Assembly: GCF_001571145.1 (NCBI RefSeq)
Contig: NZ_BCTF01000002.1
Span: forward strand, 1 to 64,000
Source of the DNA: Hydrogenophaga flava NBRC 102514
Lineage (GTDB): Bacteria > Pseudomonadota > Gammaproteobacteria > Burkholderiales > Burkholderiaceae_C
Reading direction: 5' to 3'
DNA: 64,000 bases
Position 1 is the first letter of the stretch. Each line of letters starts with the position of its first letter. Positions 54,863-62,148 of this stretch are shown here, piece after piece. The notes under the pieces were generated by a model, which did not search any database, was not told the DNA's origin, and saw only the letters and a program-made list of their open reading frames with translations. Made by a program: the position numbers and the translations under genes.

Positions 54863-56107
<1,245 letters not shown>

Positions 56108-57108: not shown

Positions 57109-57981
57109 TCAGGCCTGCAGGTGGCGCGGGCCGGTGGGACGCTGGCGCAGCACGCCGCGCGGCGCGAAGGCCATGGACAGCAGGTAGACCGTGCCCAGGC
57201 CGAGCACGATGACCGGGCTGGTCGGCCAGTCGGCGTGGTAGGACAGCAGCAGGCCGGCGATGGACGTGAGCAGCGCGATGCCGGTGGCCACGGCCACCAG
57301 CGGGCCGAGGCGCCGCACCCAGAAGCGCGCGCTGGCGGCCGGCAGCACCATGATGCCCACCGCCATCAGCGTGCCCAGTGCGTGGAAGCCGGCCACCAGG
57401 TTGATCACCAGCAGGGCCAGAAAGCCGACGTGCGCCACCGCGCCCAGCCCGCTGACTTGGCGCAGGAAGCCCGGGTCCAGGCATTCGAGGATCAGCGGTC
57501 GTCGGATCAGGAACAGGGTGACCAGCGTCACGCCGGTGATGCCCCAGAGCAGTGCCAGCGCCGCATCGTCCAGCGCCAGCACGCTGCCGAACAGCACATG
57601 CAACAGGTCCACGCTGTTGCCGCGCACCGAGACGATGAGCACGCCCAGCGAGAGCGAGATCAGGTAGAAGGCTGCCAGGCTGGTGTCCTCGCGGATCAGC
57701 GTGTGGCGCGCCACCAGGCCGGAACCGATGGCCACCGCCAGACCGGCGACGATGCCGCCCACCGTCATGGCCGCCAGCGACAGGCCAAACAGCAGGTAGC
57801 CGATGGCCGCGCCCGGCAGGATGGCGTGCGCCATGGCGTCGCCCGTGAGGCTCATGCGCCGCAGCATCAGGAACACGCCCACCGGAGCGGCCGACAGGGC
57901 CAGCGCGATGCAGCCCAGCAGGGCCTGGCGCATGAAGCCGAATTCGATGAAGGGGCCGAAGATCAGGTTGCCTTCGTTCAT
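57109..57981 (-). CDS. znuB: Zinc ABC transporter permease
   Basis: A 290-residue inner-membrane permease of the ABC-3 family with about eight helices; early FGFMRQALLGCIALALSAAPVGVFLMLRRMSLTGDAMAHAILPG contains the conserved GDAMAHA. The ATG at 57981 overlaps the znuC stop (ATGA), giving tight coupling. Confidence 0.94.
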   Translation of the reverse strand: MNEGNLIFGPFIEFGFMRQALLGCIALALSAAPVGVFLMLRRMSLTGDAMAHAILPGAAIGYLLFGLSLAAMTVGGIVAGLAVAIGSGLVARHTLIREDTSLAAFYLISLSLGVLIVSVRGNSVDLLHVLFGSVLALDDAALALLWGITGVTLVTLFLIRRPLILECLDPGFLRQVSGLGAVAHVGFLALLVINLVAGFHALGTLMAVGIMVLPAASARFWVRRLGPLVAVATGIALLTSIAGLLLSYHADWPTSPVIVLGLGTVYLLSMAFAPRGVLRQRPTGPRHLQA

Positions 57982-58784
57982 GGCGTGGCCTCCAGCGCGG
58001 GGCCCTGCGAGTGCATGTGCGGGTGATACCCCCTGGCGGGCGAGCCGGTCTCGCATTCGCCGGCCTGCTCGTCGAAGGGTTCGCGCAGCGACTGCGCGCG
58101 GGCCCAGTTCGCGTCGGTCAGCACCTCGGCCGTGGCGCCCCAGGCCACCGGCTCGCGCGCCAGCAGCAGGGTCTGGGGGAAGTGTTCTCGCACCTGCGCC
58201 AGATCGTGCAGCACGGCGATCACCGTCTTGTCCTGGCGCTGCCAGCCGTGCAACAGGGCCAGCAGGTCGGCGGTAGTGCGCTGGTCCACCGCGGCAAAGG
58301 GTTCGTCCAGCAGCACCACGGGCGCGTCCTGCAGGACCAGCCGCGCGAACCGCGCGCGCTGCAGCTGCCCGCCCGAGAGCGTGTCCAGCCCGCGCCTCTC
58401 GAAGCCCGAGAGGCCGACCGCGGCCAGCGCGGCATCGCACTGCTGCCGGTGCGCGGCGGTGAAGCGCCCGAGCGCGCCGACCCGCCGCCACAGACCGCTG
58501 GCCACCATGCCACGCACGTCGATGGGAAAGCTGGCGTCGAGCTCGCTGTGCTGCGGCAACCAGGCGATGTGCTCGCGCCGCAGGCCTTCGATGTGGCCCG
58601 ACAGCGGCGCCAGCGCTCCGGCCAGCGCCTTGACCAAGGTGCTTTTGCCGGCGCCGTTGGGACCGACCACGGCCACCAGCGCACCGGGTTCAATGTGCAG
58701 GCTCAGGTGGTGCACCGCCGGGTGGCGCTCGTAGCCCAGCGTCAAGTCGCGCAGGGTGATGGTGGGGGCTTGGGGGCCTGTCAT
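57978..58784 (-). CDS. znuC: Zinc ABC transporter ATP-binding protein
   Basis: A 268-residue ABC ATPase with Walker A GPNGAGKSTLVK, signature LSGGQLQRAR and Walker B VVLLDEPFAAVD. A His-containing C-terminal tail (GYHPHMHSQG) may bind metal. Start ATG 58784 is right next to the zur-znuC intergenic region, making it the first gene of znuCBA-cobW-cobW. Confidence 0.94.
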   Translation of the reverse strand: MTGPQAPTITLRDLTLGYERHPAVHHLSLHIEPGALVAVVGPNGAGKSTLVKALAGALAPLSGHIEGLRREHIAWLPQHSELDASFPIDVRGMVASGLWRRVGALGRFTAAHRQQCDAALAAVGLSGFERRGLDTLSGGQLQRARFARLVLQDAPVVLLDEPFAAVDQRTTADLLALLHGWQRQDKTVIAVLHDLAQVREHFPQTLLLAREPVAWGATAEVLTDANWARAQSLREPFDEQAGECETGSPARGYHPHMHSQGPALEATP

Positions 58785-58801
58785 TGGGCTGTGTAAACTG
58801 T

Positions 58802-58816
58802 TGCAACTCAATTGCG
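58802..58816 (-). promoter_or_regulatory. Degenerate Zur-box-like dyad on the znuC side
   Basis: TGCAACTCAATTGCG keeps the outer GCAAC and TTGCG arms of the perfect palindrome at 58833-58847 but not its centre; it sits about 17 bp before the znuC start. GTTGCAAC (58800-58807) is itself a perfect palindrome overlapping it. Confidence 0.5.
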
Positions 58817-58832
58817 ATAGTGCGAATGTTAA

Positions 58833-58847
58833 CGCAACATTGTTGCG
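58833..58847 (+). promoter_or_regulatory. Probable Zur box on the zur side
   Basis: CGCAACA-T-TGTTGCG is a perfect 7-1-7 palindrome ending 16 bp before the zur start codon. Odd-centred 7-1-7 symmetry is what Fur-family dimers bind. Autoregulation by Zur and control of the divergent znu operon are inferred from position. Confidence 0.7.
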
Positions 58848-58863
58848 ATAATGGAGGCCTTCT

Positions 58864-59379
58864 ATGGCAACCCGACCCAGCCCCAAAGAACCGGTGACCG
58901 TGCCGGCCGAGATCCAGACCCGTCTGGAAGCCGCCGGCCTGCGCCGCACCCTCGCCACACGCGCGGTGCTGGGCCTGTTCCTGGCCAACCCGCAGGGCAC
59001 GCTCAGCCACGCCCAGGCCCTGGCCTCGCTGCAGACTCGCGGGCTGGACATCAACCGCGTCACCCTCTACCGGCTGCTGGAACGCCTGGCCGCCTGTGGT
59101 GTGCTGCAGCGCCAGACCGACGACGACGCGCGCACCTGGCGCTTCCGACTGGCCGACCTGAGCGAGGACGGCACTGCGCCGCGCTTCGAATGCGACGCCT
59201 GCCATCGGCAGTTCCGCCTGGCCTCGGCGAGCGAACCGGCGCGGGCCGTGGCCGACGAGCTGATGCGCACGCTGGCGGGCATGGGGCACCGGGGCCTGCG
59301 GCTGGACATGGCCGTGCACGGCACATGCGCCGACTGCGCCGATCCCTCGGGCAGCCCGGCGACGGAGCCGCCGCGGTGA
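58864..59379 (+). CDS. zur: Zinc uptake regulator Zur (Fur family)
   Basis: A 171-residue Fur-family repressor. The winged helix contains AGLRRTLATRAVLGLF and NRVTLYRLLERLAACGVL. The structural zinc site is ECDAC plus CADC near the C-terminus, and the His-rich segment usual of Fur is thin, supporting Zur. It starts a rightward operon with a MacB-like ABC pair, and its stop overlaps the next start (GTGA). It lies across from znuC. Confidence 0.93.
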   Translation: MATRPSPKEPVTVPAEIQTRLEAAGLRRTLATRAVLGLFLANPQGTLSHAQALASLQTRGLDINRVTLYRLLERLAACGVLQRQTDDDARTWRFRLADLSEDGTAPRFECDACHRQFRLASASEPARAVADELMRTLAGMGHRGLRLDMAVHGTCADCADPSGSPATEPPR

Positions 59380-60026
59380 TCGAGACCCGCGACCTTGCCT
59401 TCTCCTACTCGCAGGCGCCTGTCCTGCGCTTCCCCGACGTGGCGGTGCCGCAGGGCGGCACGCTGCTGCTGCGCGGGCCCTCGGGCAGCGGCAAGTCCAC
59501 CTGGCTGGCCCTGGTCTCCGGTCTGCTCACGCCATCGTCCGGGGAGGTGGTCGTGGTCGGGCAGGCGGTGCACGCGCTGGCCGGCGCGGCCCGCGACCGC
59601 TGGCGCGCGCGTTGCCTGGGTTTTTTGCCGCAGAAGCTGTTCCTGAGCGAAGCGCTGTCGGTGGCCGACAACCTGGCGCTGGTGTTCTTCGCCGCCGGAC
59701 TGCCGGTGGACCGGGGCGCCATCGGGCGTGCGCTGTCGGCGCTGGACCTGTCGGCGCTGACGGAGCGCAAACCGTCGCAGCTCTCGGGTGGCCAGGCTCA
59801 GCGGGTGGCATTGGCGCGGGCGTTGCTGCTGCAGCCCAAAGTGTTGCTGGTCGACGAACCCACGGCCAGCCTGGACGACGAGGCCTGCGCGGCCGCGCTG
59901 GCGCTGCTGCAGCGTGGTGCCGCCGAGGTCGGCGCGACGCTGGTGATCTCGACCCACGACGCACGCGTGGTGCAGGCGCTGCCCGCCGCGCAGACGCTGC
60001 GGCTGGCGCGGGAGGGAGTGGCATGA
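59376..60026 (+). CDS. ABC transporter ATP-binding protein (LolD/MacB-like) of the zur operon
   Basis: A 216-residue ABC ATPase with GTG start at 59376 overlapping the zur stop. Walker A GPSGSGKS, signature LSGGQAQRVAL and Walker B VLLVDEPTASLDDEA are intact. The size and the following FtsX-like permease fit a MacB/LolCDE-type system that works on lipoproteins or envelope proteins rather than bulk solute uptake. In Pseudomonas aeruginosa the like-arranged PA4064 is zinc-repressed. Confidence 0.9.
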   Translation: MIETRDLAFSYSQAPVLRFPDVAVPQGGTLLLRGPSGSGKSTWLALVSGLLTPSSGEVVVVGQAVHALAGAARDRWRARCLGFLPQKLFLSEALSVADNLALVFFAAGLPVDRGAIGRALSALDLSALTERKPSQLSGGQAQRVALARALLLQPKVLLVDEPTASLDDEACAAALALLQRGAAEVGATLVISTHDARVVQALPAAQTLRLAREGVA

Positions 60027-61234
60027 ACGTGCTGAGCCTGTCCTGGCGCTACCTCTGGTCGCGTCCGCTGTCCACGGCGCTGAACCTGCTGTTGCTCACA
60101 CTCGGGCTGGCCTCGATGGCCTTCGTGCTGATCGCACAGCACCAGGTGGACCGTGCGTTCGAGCGCGACCTGCAGGGCATCGACGCGGTGGTCGGCGCCA
60201 AGGGCAGCCCGATGCAGCTGATCCTGGCGGGTGTGTTCCACATCGATGTGCCGCCGGGCAACATCCCTCTGGAGGAAGTGAAGAAGCTGCAGGCCCATCC
60301 ACAGGTGGCGCAGCTGATTCCGCTGAGCCTGGGCGACAACCTGCAGGGCTTCCGCATCGTCGGCACCACGCCGGACTACGCAACCCACTACGGCGCGACC
60401 CTGGCGCAGGGCGCGTTCTGGACCGCGCCGATGCAGGCGGTGCTGGGCGCCCAGGTGGCGCGCAGCACCGGTCTGGCGCTAGGCCAGTCTTTCGTCGGTG
60501 CGCACGGGCTGGGCAGCGGCGGCGCGGTGCACGGCGAGGCGCTGTATGCGGTGAACGGCGTGCTCGCGCCCTGCGGCTGTGTGCTCGACCGGCTGGTGCT
60601 GACGGCGACCGAATCGGTCTGGAAGGTGCACGACGACATGCACGCCACCGAGGACATGGACGAAGAAGACCGCGCGGCCATCGAGGCCGACCGGGAGGTG
60701 ACGCTGGCCTTGATCCGCTACCGCACGCCGCTGGCGGCCGCGAGCTTTCCGCGCTTCATCAACGACAGCACGCCGATGCAGGCGGCCTCGCCGGCGGTGG
60801 AGATCACGCGCCTGCTGAGCATGGTGGGTGTGGGCACGCGTGTGCTGCAAGGCCTGGGCGCGGTGCTGCTGGCGGTGGCCGGGCTGTCGGTGTTCATCGC
60901 GCTCTGGGGCGCGGTGCGCGAGCGCCGCCACGACCTGGCGATGCTGCGCATGCTCGGCGCGCCGCCGACCCGGGTGGGCGCGCTGGTGCTGTGCGAATCG
61001 CTGTGGCTGGCGCTGATGGCCTGCACGCTGGGCTTGCTGGCGGCACACGGTCTGACCGCGCTGATGGGGCAGATGTTGATGGACCAGCAGTCGCTGGCCA
61101 TCACGGGCTGGCAGTGGGTGCCCGCCGAAGGGTGGGTGCCGCTGCTGGCCCTGGGGGTGGCGGTGGTGGCGGCGCTGGTGCCGGCCGTCAGCGCCTATCG
61201 GGTCGATGTGACCCAGTTGTTGAACACGAGGTGA
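60023..61234 (+). CDS. MacB/FtsX-like ABC permease of the zur operon
   Basis: A 403-residue permease: an N-terminal membrane helix (SLSWRYLWSRPLSTALNLLLLTLGLASMAFVL), a large periplasmic domain with VGAKGSPMQLILAGVFH, an acidic patch (VHDDMHATEDMDEEDRAAIEAD) that could bind metal, and three C-terminal helices of the FtsX type. PA4065 of P. aeruginosa is the positional counterpart. ATGA overlap with the ATPase gene. Confidence 0.9.
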   Translation: MNVLSLSWRYLWSRPLSTALNLLLLTLGLASMAFVLIAQHQVDRAFERDLQGIDAVVGAKGSPMQLILAGVFHIDVPPGNIPLEEVKKLQAHPQVAQLIPLSLGDNLQGFRIVGTTPDYATHYGATLAQGAFWTAPMQAVLGAQVARSTGLALGQSFVGAHGLGSGGAVHGEALYAVNGVLAPCGCVLDRLVLTATESVWKVHDDMHATEDMDEEDRAAIEADREVTLALIRYRTPLAAASFPRFINDSTPMQAASPAVEITRLLSMVGVGTRVLQGLGAVLLAVAGLSVFIALWGAVRERRHDLAMLRMLGAPPTRVGALVLCESLWLALMACTLGLLAAHGLTALMGQMLMDQQSLAITGWQWVPAEGWVPLLALGVAVVAALVPAVSAYRVDVTQLLNTR

Positions 61235-61239
61235 AACCG

Positions 61240-61482
61240 ATGAAAAAGACCGCTCTCTTCCTGGCCCTGTCCGCCTGCATGACCACCGCCGCGCTGGCGC
61301 AGCACTCCGACAAGGAACTGCAGGAAGACATCCAGCGCCACCGCGCCATGGCCGCGGCCCACGAGGGCGCGGCCAAATGCCTGGAGACCAAGAGGGACGA
61401 GAAGGTCTGCATGGCGGAACTTCAGGCCGCGTGCAGGGGTCTGGCGATTGGCAAATACTGTGGGATGAAGCACGCGCATTAA
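61240..61482 (+). CDS. Small Cys-rich periplasmic protein of the zur operon
   Basis: An 80-residue protein. MKKTALFLALSACMTTAALAQ is a Sec signal peptide with cleavage after LAQ, leaving about 59 residues. The mature part has four Cys (AAKCLETK, DEKVCMAEL, QAACRGL, GKYCGMKHAH) and His residues at both ends, so metal binding or two disulfides are possible. It begins 5 bp after the permease gene and is clearly part of the zur operon. No family is recognised. Confidence 0.8.
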   Translation: MKKTALFLALSACMTTAALAQHSDKELQEDIQRHRAMAAAHEGAAKCLETKRDEKVCMAELQAACRGLAIGKYCGMKHAH

Positions 61483-61486
61483 TGGG

Positions 61487-61571
61487 CCACCCCCGCGCCG
61501 CGCTTCGCGCGTCACCCCCTCCAGGGGGCAACGCGAGCGGCCCGGCGGAGCCGGTTCCGCCGCGTTCTTGA
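61487..61571 (+). repeat. Dispersed GC-rich intergenic repeat, copy B
   Basis: About 85 bp matching 43789-43869 in inverted orientation, with the same ordered blocks (CCACCCCCGC to TTCTTGA). It fills the gap between the small Cys-rich gene and the DUF3299 gene and can form stable hairpins, which could terminate or stabilise the zur-operon mRNA. Confidence 0.8.
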
Positions 61572-61590
61572 ATGAAGTCCTTGCTCTCTT

Positions 61591-62148
61591 ATGAATCTTC
61601 GTTTTCGTTGCTTGCTGTTGCCGCTGGCTTGTTTCTCCGGGTTGGCGTTGGCGCAGCTGACGTCGCCCATTGGCACGCCTGCCGCGCCGGCCGCCGGGGC
61701 TGCAGCCGATCCCGTCGTGCCTCCGCATGTGCAAGGGCAGGGGGCTGGGGTGCACAGTCCGCTGTCGCCGTTTGCGCCGCTCAAGCCGCGCGAGGACGTG
61801 GTGCCCTGGTCGCTGCTGACCGACATCAAGACCGAGGTGAAGAACAAGCGCATCACACCGGTCTACACACCGGGCGTGCAGGCGCTGAACCAGAAGACGC
61901 AGAAGGTGCAGGGCTTCATGCTGCCGCTGGGGCCGGGCGAGCAGCAGCGCCACTTCCTGCTCGCATCGGTGCCACCGACCTGTTCGTTCTGCACGCCGGG
62001 CGGGCCGGAAAGCATGATCGAGGTCCGCACCAAGGCGCCGGTCAAGTACAGCCTCAATGCGGTGGTGGTCGAGGGCACGTTCCACGTGCTGCAGAACGAC
62101 CCCTACGGCCTGTACTACCGCATGACCGAAGCGGTCGGCGTCAAGTAG
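61591..62148 (+). CDS. DUF3299 family secreted protein
   Basis: A 185-residue exported protein: signal peptide ending LALAQ, a low-complexity Pro/Ala region, then the DUF3299 core. Core marks are VQGFMLPLGPGEQQRHFLLAS, PPTCSFCTPGGPESM (two Cys in C-S-F-C) and LYYRMTEA. DUF3299 proteins sit next to MacB-like pairs in zinc-regulated operons of pseudomonads (PA4066). It overlaps the convergent membrane-protein gene by 8 bp. The role is unknown; a periplasmic metal protein is the favoured idea. Confidence 0.88.
   Translation: MNLRFRCLLLPLACFSGLALAQLTSPIGTPAAPAAGAAADPVVPPHVQGQGAGVHSPLSPFAPLKPREDVVPWSLLTDIKTEVKNKRITPVYTPGVQALNQKTQKVQGFMLPLGPGEQQRHFLLASVPPTCSFCTPGGPESMIEVRTKAPVKYSLNAVVVEGTFHVLQNDPYGLYYRMTEAVGVK

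What the first reader, a model, noticed from the sequence alone, without database searches (positions are those of the whole stretch)
58864..62148. Zur-led operon resembling PA4063-PA4066, lacking the PA4063-type protein and carrying a new Cys-rich one
zur, an ABC ATPase, a MacB-like permease, an 80-residue Cys-rich exported protein and a DUF3299 protein run in one direction with overlapping or near-abutting genes. In P. aeruginosa the zinc-repressed PA4063-PA4066 operon has the ATPase, permease and DUF3299 genes, preceded by a His-rich DUF2796 metallochaperone. Here no such gene is seen, and the Cys-rich protein sits inside the operon, so it may take over the periplasmic zinc-binding role.
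Basis: partly seen in the sequence, partly recalled or inferred. Interest (0 to 1): 0.75.

Follow-up and report, generated by a model that had tools for sequence, protein, structure and literature searches.

The report
Small Cys-His protein in zinc operon
Beside its zinc-uptake genes a Hydrogenophaga-type bacterium carries a second operon, probably switched on by zinc shortage, whose small exported Cys/His protein seems to replace metal-binding parts that relatives carry as a separate protein or as a histidine-rich loop of the transporter itself.

Summary
In detail: zur, ATPase, MacB-like permease, an 80-aa exported Cys protein and DUF3299 run one way at 58864-62148, and DUF2796/ZrgA has no match in the genome (the search rings in 34 of 200 family genomes). 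Two Zur-box palindromes (58799-58819, 58830-58850) lie between zur and divergent znuCBA, the best matches in the genome. The Cys protein is an unnamed Burkholderiales family: C-x9-C-x7-C-x8-C in 51 of 51, four invariant His. No family genome has both it and ZrgA (53 and 34 of 200). Main new result: where the Cys gene is not adjacent, the permease often has a His-rich loop after invariant H203; with it, never in this sample. Loops with 3 or more His: 0 of 103 against 11 of 18; pre-stated hold-out 0 of 34 against 11 of 11; ZrgA-type permeases 0 of 21. Corrected for kinship the support is modest (median p 0.03-0.13). I read the protein as one of three interchangeable metal-loading parts of a ZrgBC-like transporter. 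It also survives without that transporter, beside znuD, zur or znuA. Zinc binding and zinc response are untested.

The parts
58799..58819 (.). Zur box 1 (TGTTGCAACTCAATTGCGATA)
   Evidence: De novo palindromic motif from 42 znuC/zur intergenic regions, window included; only this and box 2 score above 14 in 64 kb; 1 mismatch to the pattern genome-wide
58830..58850 (.). Zur box 2 (TAACGCAACATTGTTGCGATA)
   Evidence: As box 1; 2 mismatches
58864..59379 (+). zur (Fur-family zinc regulator)
   Evidence: Profile of 22 members against PDB; CxxC pairs C110/C113 and C155/C158 invariant
59376..60026 (+). ABC ATPase, ZrgC/PA4064-like
   Evidence: Pfam ABC_tran 101.8 bits
60023..61234 (+). MacB/LolCDE-type permease, ZrgB/PA4065-like; conserved H161, H170, D189, H203; His-poor loop 204-224
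   Evidence: Pfam FtsX and MacB_PCD; AF2 pLDDT 92.9; Foldseek best LolCDE 7e-18, MacB 1.9e-16; loop analysis
61240..61482 (+). 80-aa exported Cys/His helical-hairpin protein
   Evidence: Family alignment of 51; Cys spacing 9,7,8 in 51 of 51; AF2 helices 24-49 and 54-66, pLDDT 79.4; signal peptide read by eye
61591..62148 (+). DUF3299 protein, ZrgE/PA4066-like, with a CxxC (TCSFC)
   Evidence: Pfam 25.9 bits, cut-off 22; a CxxC in 117 of 119 proteins read from related loci, window included
57978..58784 (-). znuC, divergent from zur
   Evidence: Pfam ABC_tran 96 bits; named znuC from its place with znuB and znuA
57109..57990 (-). znuB (start not fixed)
   Evidence: Pfam ABC-3 169 bits
56122..57069 (-). 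znuA
   Evidence: Pfam ZnuA 4e-88
54863..56107 (-). CobW-family GTPase directly after znuA
   Evidence: Pfam cobW 1.6e-54 and CobW_C 3e-22

Best explanation
This is a Zur-repressed, ZrgA-less variant of the zrg / PA4063-PA4066 type operon. When zinc is low, Zur leaves two boxes in one bidirectional promoter, and znuCBA on one side and zur-zrgC-zrgB-cys-zrgE on the other are transcribed (inferred from boxes and gene order). ATPase and permease form a MacB/LolCDE-type ABC machine whose periplasmic domain has a conserved His/Asp set (H161, H170, D189, H203), probably a metal site (inferred). The small exported protein is a helical hairpin, probably disulfide-stapled, whose four invariant His (H34, H41, H78, H80) bind zinc or a similar metal (inferred) and bring it to that domain. 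Relatives supply this part in cis, as a His-rich loop directly after H203, or as ZrgA in the sister type. In some lineages the same protein serves ZnuD or ZnuABC instead. Shown: gene order, boxes, conservation, mutual exclusion. Inferred: metal binding, contact with the permease, direction of transport.
For: Loop exchange: 0 of 103 operons with adjacent Cys gene, against 11 of 18 without, have 3 or more His between H203 and E225; three of those 18 have the gene elsewhere in the genome or contig, and their loops have 0-1 His. Pre-stated hold-out (note): 0 of 34 against 11 of 11. Specificity: His elsewhere in the permease is not raised in Cys-less operons (8.3 with, 7.5 without the gene). Phylogeny, both sets joined: 7 independent pairs, 5-7 opposite and 0 same per pairing, median sign-test p 0.031. 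ZrgA-type permeases: loop His 0-1 in 21 of 21. No overlap of Cys protein and ZrgA in 200 family genomes, 9.0 expected. Four Cys and four His invariant in 51 of 51. Zur boxes. Other contexts of the gene, znuD, zur, znuA-znuC, are zinc genes (two receptors checked, both nearest to ZnuD 4rdr, 5e-119 and 5e-55).
Against: No binding, metal-bound structure or expression data. Seven of 53 family genomes have the Cys gene without a detected A-type permease (one is a cut contig), and 6 of 80 named loci have it beside none of the zinc genes tested, so it is not only a part of this transporter. In operons without adjacent zur the box is missing (1 of 55 upstream regions; 0 of 27 for Cys genes without adjacent transporter), so zinc control there is unproved. 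Four of 15 operons whose genome lacks the Cys gene have only 1-2 loop His. Kinship-aware tests are weaker on the training set alone: by adjacency 8 pairs, 4.0-5.3 opposite, up to 1 same, median p 0.06-0.13; by genome 6 pairs, 4.6-5.8 opposite, 0 same, median p 0.03-0.06. The hold-out shares genera with the training set, and there Cys absence was judged by adjacency. The P. aeruginosa counterpart was read as exporter of pyochelin-cobalt (PMC11481552, passages), which would turn a 'loading' role round. No structural neighbour of the Cys protein at E<=1. The order-level lack of overlap with ZrgA is weak alone (0 seen, 2.1 expected).
Confidence: 0.53

Rival explanations
1. The protein is a general periplasmic zinc buffer or chaperone (a functional analogue of ZinT) that serves ZnuABC and ZnuD; its place in the ABC operon only reflects shared zinc control.
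For: Kept without an adjacent transporter: beside the ZnuD-like receptor (L045-L047, L088 and 9 of 80 named loci), after zur (L130, L168, L220), beside none of the zinc genes tested (6 of 80 named loci), and as a fused tandem between znuA and an ATPase/ABC-3 pair (L222). No ZinT match in the window's genome (control rings in E. coli).
Against: Does not predict the exchange with one loop of this one permease nor that His in the rest of the permease is not raised.
Confidence: 0.28
2. The protein is cargo: the MacB-like machine exports it as a small zinc-scavenging protein, and ZnuD or another TonB receptor brings the metal back.
For: MacB/LolCDE fold; a MacB-type export role is proposed for PA4064/PA4065 (PMC11481552, passages); a ZnuD-like receptor lies in 24 of 80 named loci.
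Against: Kept in genomes where no A-type permease was detected; a His-rich loop in the permease would not replace a lost cargo; the five genes of the window's operon include no outer-membrane channel or adaptor.
Confidence: 0.07
3. It is a redox partner rather than a metal carrier, working with the CxxC of the DUF3299 protein and, in other genera, with the neighbouring msrA product.
For: CxxC in 117 of 119 DUF3299 proteins; an msrA gene lies upstream in L047 (Pfam PMSR 9e-67) and, by eye, in several other zur-less loci.
Against: Four invariant His are not explained; the CxxC is present in Cys-less operons too (17 of 18); exchange with a His-rich loop points to metal.
Confidence: 0.07

Closest known systems
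ZrgABCDE of Vibrio / PA4063-PA4066 of P. aeruginosa
   Same: Zur-linked ATPase + MacB-like permease + DUF3299 protein; the same conserved permease His/Asp positions are in the 21 ZrgA-type permeases examined, all from Burkholderiales; Vibrio and Pseudomonas proteins themselves were not compared
   Different: No ZrgA/DUF2796; Cys/His hairpin gene between permease and DUF3299; zur itself heads the operon; permease 32% identical to each of two ZrgA-type ones; DUF3299 carries TCSFC where ZrgA-type ones carry ACIH. Vibrio parahaemolyticus ZrgD is a DUF2607 protein listed next to zrgA, not in the Cys slot (PMC9817125, passages)
ZinT (PF09223), periplasmic zinc chaperone
   Same: Proposed role: small periplasmic zinc helper of uptake systems (ZinT's role from PMC8561739, passages)
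   Different: No sequence relation found; no ZinT match in this genome
ZnuD, TonB-dependent zinc receptor
   Same: Gene neighbour of the Cys protein in relatives (24 of 80 named loci hold a receptor match)
   Different: Only a distant receptor match (32% over part) in the window's genome, elsewhere
Zur regulon of Cupriavidus metallidurans (same order, by recall)
   Same: Zur-linked zinc genes including cobW
   Different: The review's table lists zupT, a TonB receptor and cobW genes but no znuABC or zrg for it (PMC6103462, passages)

Membership tests
ZrgABCDE / PA4063-PA4066 operon | ZrgA (DUF2796, PF10986) gene | tested here: not met
   No match in the whole genome; the search works in relatives
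ZrgABCDE / PA4063-PA4066 operon | ABC ATPase and MacB-like permease | tested here: met
   Pfam, AF2 and Foldseek of the permease
ZrgABCDE / PA4063-PA4066 operon | DUF3299 protein (ZrgE/PA4066) | tested here: met
   25.9 bits, cut-off 22, a weak match beside 137-159 bits for 5 of 5 ZrgA-type ones; TCSFC in place of ACIH; no PDB match of the single sequence, PA4066's 4hsp included
ZrgABCDE / PA4063-PA4066 operon | Repression by Zur with zinc | tested here: inconclusive
   Two conserved boxes; no expression data
ZrgABCDE / PA4063-PA4066 operon | Contributes to growth when zinc is low | not testable with these tools
   -
Zur (Fur family) | Fur-family sequence and structural Cys4 zinc site | tested here: met
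   Profile against PDB, four invariant Cys; single sequence is below Pfam cut-off
ZinT | PF09223 domain | tested here: not met
   No such Pfam match of the Cys protein; PF09223 has no match in the genome
Any known family for the Cys protein | Match to a curated model | tested here: not met
   Window protein 0 in Pfam at E<=1; over 51 members only scattered weak hits at E<=0.01 (Conotoxin 4, DUF6488 3, DUF6520 1); PHROGs and PADLOC not searched

The most novel reading that the evidence does not exclude
A split MacB/LolCDE-type ABC machine uses three interchangeable metal-donor modules for one conserved His/Asp site: a separate His-rich protein (ZrgA), a His-rich loop grown in the permease itself, or a new family of disulfide-stapled Cys/His hairpins. 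The hairpin has also been recruited by ZnuD- and ZnuABC-type uptake, which would make it a new class of bacterial periplasmic zinc chaperone.
Probability: 0.45. Interest if true: 0.78.

Novelty: new variant of a known kind. Interest (0 to 1): 0.63.

Why it matters
How a MacB-like ABC machine helps cells in zinc starvation is disputed (zinc importer in Vibrio, exporter of a metallophore complex in P. aeruginosa). A swap between ZrgA, a permease loop and a small Cys/His protein points to metal delivery at one spot of the permease's periplasmic domain and gives a short list of residues to test. It also names a small-protein family of Burkholderiales that neither Pfam nor NCBIfam covers and that marks zinc loci.

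Tried and rejected
Lipoprotein reading: residues 10-13 (LSAC) look like a lipobox, but Cys before the mature part is present in only 14 of 51 relatives, so cleavage after ALA is preferred (by eye). V. cholerae zrgD as counterpart of the Cys gene: rejected, in V. parahaemolyticus zrgD is listed as DUF2607 beside zrgA, and in the 14 of 22 ZrgA-type loci where I could read a DUF3299-like ORF by eye it follows the permease directly (5 of these ORFs checked, all DUF3299). Fold comparison of the Cys protein: nothing at E<=1; its profile has one chance-level PDB match, E 0.78. Promoter and terminator scans: no sigma-70 match, terminators near chance; the 108-nt gap before DUF3299 folds no better than shuffles. 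De novo motif search upstream of operons without adjacent zur gave no shared palindrome except recurring coding sequence that I read as msrA. A regex failed and printed unparsed loops; I saw the pattern there by eye, and redid the count with alignment anchors.

Limits: in the hold-out Cys absence was judged by adjacency, not genome-wide. I count 56 new A-type hits in the capped list; two (split over contigs, or a fragment) were not fetched. Of 54 fetched, 9 were dropped: 8 at 97% or more identity to the training set and L326, whose broken frame left no readable loop. Of the 8, seven have the adjacent Cys gene and 0-1 loop His; L304, without it, has 0 loop His and equals L121, whose Cys gene lies elsewhere on the contig. 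One kept row (L321, G875) was 44% identical, just under the 45% line of my note; it has the Cys gene and 0 loop His. Before two ZrgA-type rows and L111 (29% identity, no Cys gene, no DUF3299 seen) were set aside, as were partial permeases and identical proteins. The named loci were found by the Cys protein and capped at 80 of 322, so the Cys-positive share is inflated. In one search Cys state is genome-level for training rows and adjacency-level for hold-out rows. The Fisher tests treat related sequences as independent.
Full report
WHAT IS THERE. Five genes run in one direction at 58864-62148: zur, an ABC ATPase, a MacB-like permease, an 80-residue exported Cys protein and a DUF3299 protein. 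The first three overlap by 4 bp at each junction, the Cys gene follows the permease after 5 bp and DUF3299 after a further 108 bp. Pfam names ATPase, permease and DUF3299 above their cut-offs; the window's Cys protein has no Pfam family. On the other side of a short intergenic region znuC, znuB and znuA run away from zur, followed by a CobW-family gene. The genome belongs with Hydrogenophaga: the closest named relative of the Cys protein is in H. pseudoflava NBRC 102511, 94% identical.

ZUR AND ITS BOXES. The regulator alone scores below Pfam's Fur cut-off (18.5 against 23.1). A profile of 22 members matches solved Fur/Zur proteins over most of their length, E. coli Zur 4mtd at 1.4e-6 and 7dh7 at 1e-10; stronger hits to designed repeat proteins cover one short repeat and I take them for artefacts. 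C110, C113, C155 and C158 are invariant. A palindromic motif search on 42 znuC/zur intergenic regions, the window among them, led to a box that I write TAAYGCAACTNRRTTGCRTTA; two sites are usual. In the window it lies at 58799-58819 and 58830-58850, the only scores above 14 in 64 kb. Genome-wide with up to 3 mismatches there are these two, plus two with 3 mismatches; the backward control has one. Outside the 42 training regions the box is in 32 of 35 loci with a zur match (misses L134, L217, L221; the zur match of L134 begins at base 3 of its locus) and in 2 of 88 loci without one. So the local Zur regulon looks like one bidirectional promoter. Operons without adjacent zur lack the box upstream (1 of 55), and so do Cys genes without adjacent transporter (0 of 27). 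In several of these msrA is the upstream gene (by eye; one checked, PMSR 9e-67). Zinc control is unproved there.

NO ZRGA. PF10986 has no match in this genome. No control genome rang in that call, but the same search finds it over cut-off in 42 of 300 order genomes and 34 of 200 family genomes. ZinT has no match either, with a control that rings.

THE CYS PROTEIN FAMILY. It occurs in 53 of 200 family genomes, 15 of 300 order genomes, and in 2 of 364 class genomes, both of the window's genus. In 51 aligned members H34, A40, H41, C47, C57, C65, G71, C74, G75, H78 and H80 are invariant, with spacing C-x9-C-x7-C-x8-C in 51 of 51. AF2 gives helices 24-49 and 54-66 and a less certain tail (pLDDT 79.4). 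Foldseek has no match at E<=1; the weak top of the list holds FrmR, CsoR and CnrX.

WHERE THE GENE SITS. Of 80 named loci (the best 80 of 322 confirmed), 60 have it between permease and DUF3299, 9 before a ZnuD-like TonB receptor, 6 before a membrane-transport gene (PF03547 in the one checked) with none of the zinc genes next to it, 2 after zur with the transporter genes not there, 2 after the permease with nothing recognised next, and 1 between zur and DUF3299. Two receptors were checked: both are nearest to ZnuD (4rdr 5e-119 in L046 and 5e-55 in L045; next best 6e-17 and 9e-12). In L222 a fused tandem version lies between a ZnuA (1e-42) and an ATPase/ABC-3 pair. The other genome of the same genus, G114, keeps the gene but has no match to the permease. 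So the gene is zinc-linked beyond this operon.

THE LOOP EXCHANGE. Fifteen fetched loci with a related permease lack the Cys gene, and none has ZrgA in the fetched DNA. Many of their permeases carry a His-rich stretch directly after invariant H203. With alignment anchors H203 and E225 (present in 121 of 121 permeases), 0 of 103 operons with the adjacent Cys gene have 3 or more His there (maximum 2), against 11 of 18 without. Three of these 18 have the Cys gene elsewhere in the same genome or contig (L110, L121, L222), and their loops have 0-1 His. Counted by genome it is 0 of 106 against 11 of 15; the other four have 1-2 His. I wrote the prediction down before a new search and fetch. In 45 usable new operons, 0 of 34 with and 11 of 11 without the adjacent Cys gene have 3 or more His. 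His elsewhere in the permease does not rise (8.3 with, 7.5 without).

KINSHIP. Tree-based independent pairs, both sets joined: 7 pairs, 5-7 opposite, 0 same, median p 0.031 at thresholds of 2 and 3 His. On the training set alone the result is weaker: by adjacency 8 pairs with 4.0-5.3 opposite on average, up to 1 same, median p 0.06 and 0.13; by genome 6 pairs with 5.8 and 4.6 opposite, 0 same, median p 0.03 and 0.06. The Cys label changes 10 times on the joint tree. All 21 ZrgA-type permeases examined have 0-1 His in the loop. H161, D189 and H203 are present in all 142 permeases of both types, and H170 in 141 with one gap.

ZRGA AND THE CYS PROTEIN. In 200 family genomes none has both (53 and 34; 9.0 expected; hypergeometric 9e-6, not corrected for kinship). 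At order level the absence of overlap is weak (2.1 expected, 0 seen). One genome (G013) has a Cys-less A-type operon and ZrgA; its A-type loop (L057) has 6 His.

MECHANISM. The permease model (pLDDT 92.9) matches LolCDE (7e-18) and MacB (1.9e-16). In V. cholerae ZrgA is needed for the function of this machine in zinc-poor growth (PMC9820375, passages); in P. aeruginosa the counterpart was proposed to export pyochelin-cobalt (PMC11481552, passages). The direction of transport is therefore open. What the present data add is that something metal-binding seems wanted at the periplasmic domain next to H203, and that three different parts can supply it: ZrgA, a loop, or the Cys/His hairpin. That the hairpin binds zinc and touches the permease is inference.

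NOVELTY. Searches for DUF3299, DUF2796 with zinc, Zur with Burkholderiales, Zur regulon with znuD/zrgA, Hydrogenophaga with Zur, and PA4065/PA4066 with cysteine- or histidine-rich (listings only, plus passages of PMC6103462 and PMC9817125) listed no paper whose title or abstract start describes this protein or the loop exchange. Many subscription papers are not held. I file it as a ZrgA-less variant that works like the zrg operon, not as a member.

Noticed in passing
   Followed up: partly
permease residues 161, 170, 189, 203 (window 60023-61234): H161, D189 and H203 in all 142 permeases examined and H170 in 141 (one gap), both in ZrgA-type and ZrgA-less operons: candidate metal site of this ABC family.
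   Followed up: partly
window 61591-62148: DUF3299 of the ZrgA-less type carries TC-x-FC where the ZrgA-type DUF3299 proteins that I read carry ACIHxPPPP (one ACVH).
   Followed up: partly
L045, L046, L047, L088, L148, L154 and others: Cys gene directly upstream of a ZnuD-like receptor with the ABC genes not adjacent; an msrA gene lies upstream in several of these and in operons without zur.
   Followed up: partly
L130, L168, L220: zur followed directly by the Cys gene, with the ATPase, permease and DUF3299 genes not found in between; Zur box kept upstream of zur.
   Followed up: partly
L043 (genome G114, same genus as the window): Keeps the Cys gene but has no match to the permease; no ZnuD-like receptor was found in the fetched 12.5 kb, unlike related neighbourhoods.
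   Followed up: no
window 61513-61529: CACCCCCTCCAGGGGGC palindrome between the Cys gene and DUF3299; 3 matches in the window with up to 2 mismatches, 0.4 expected; possibly a dispersed repeat.
   Followed up: no
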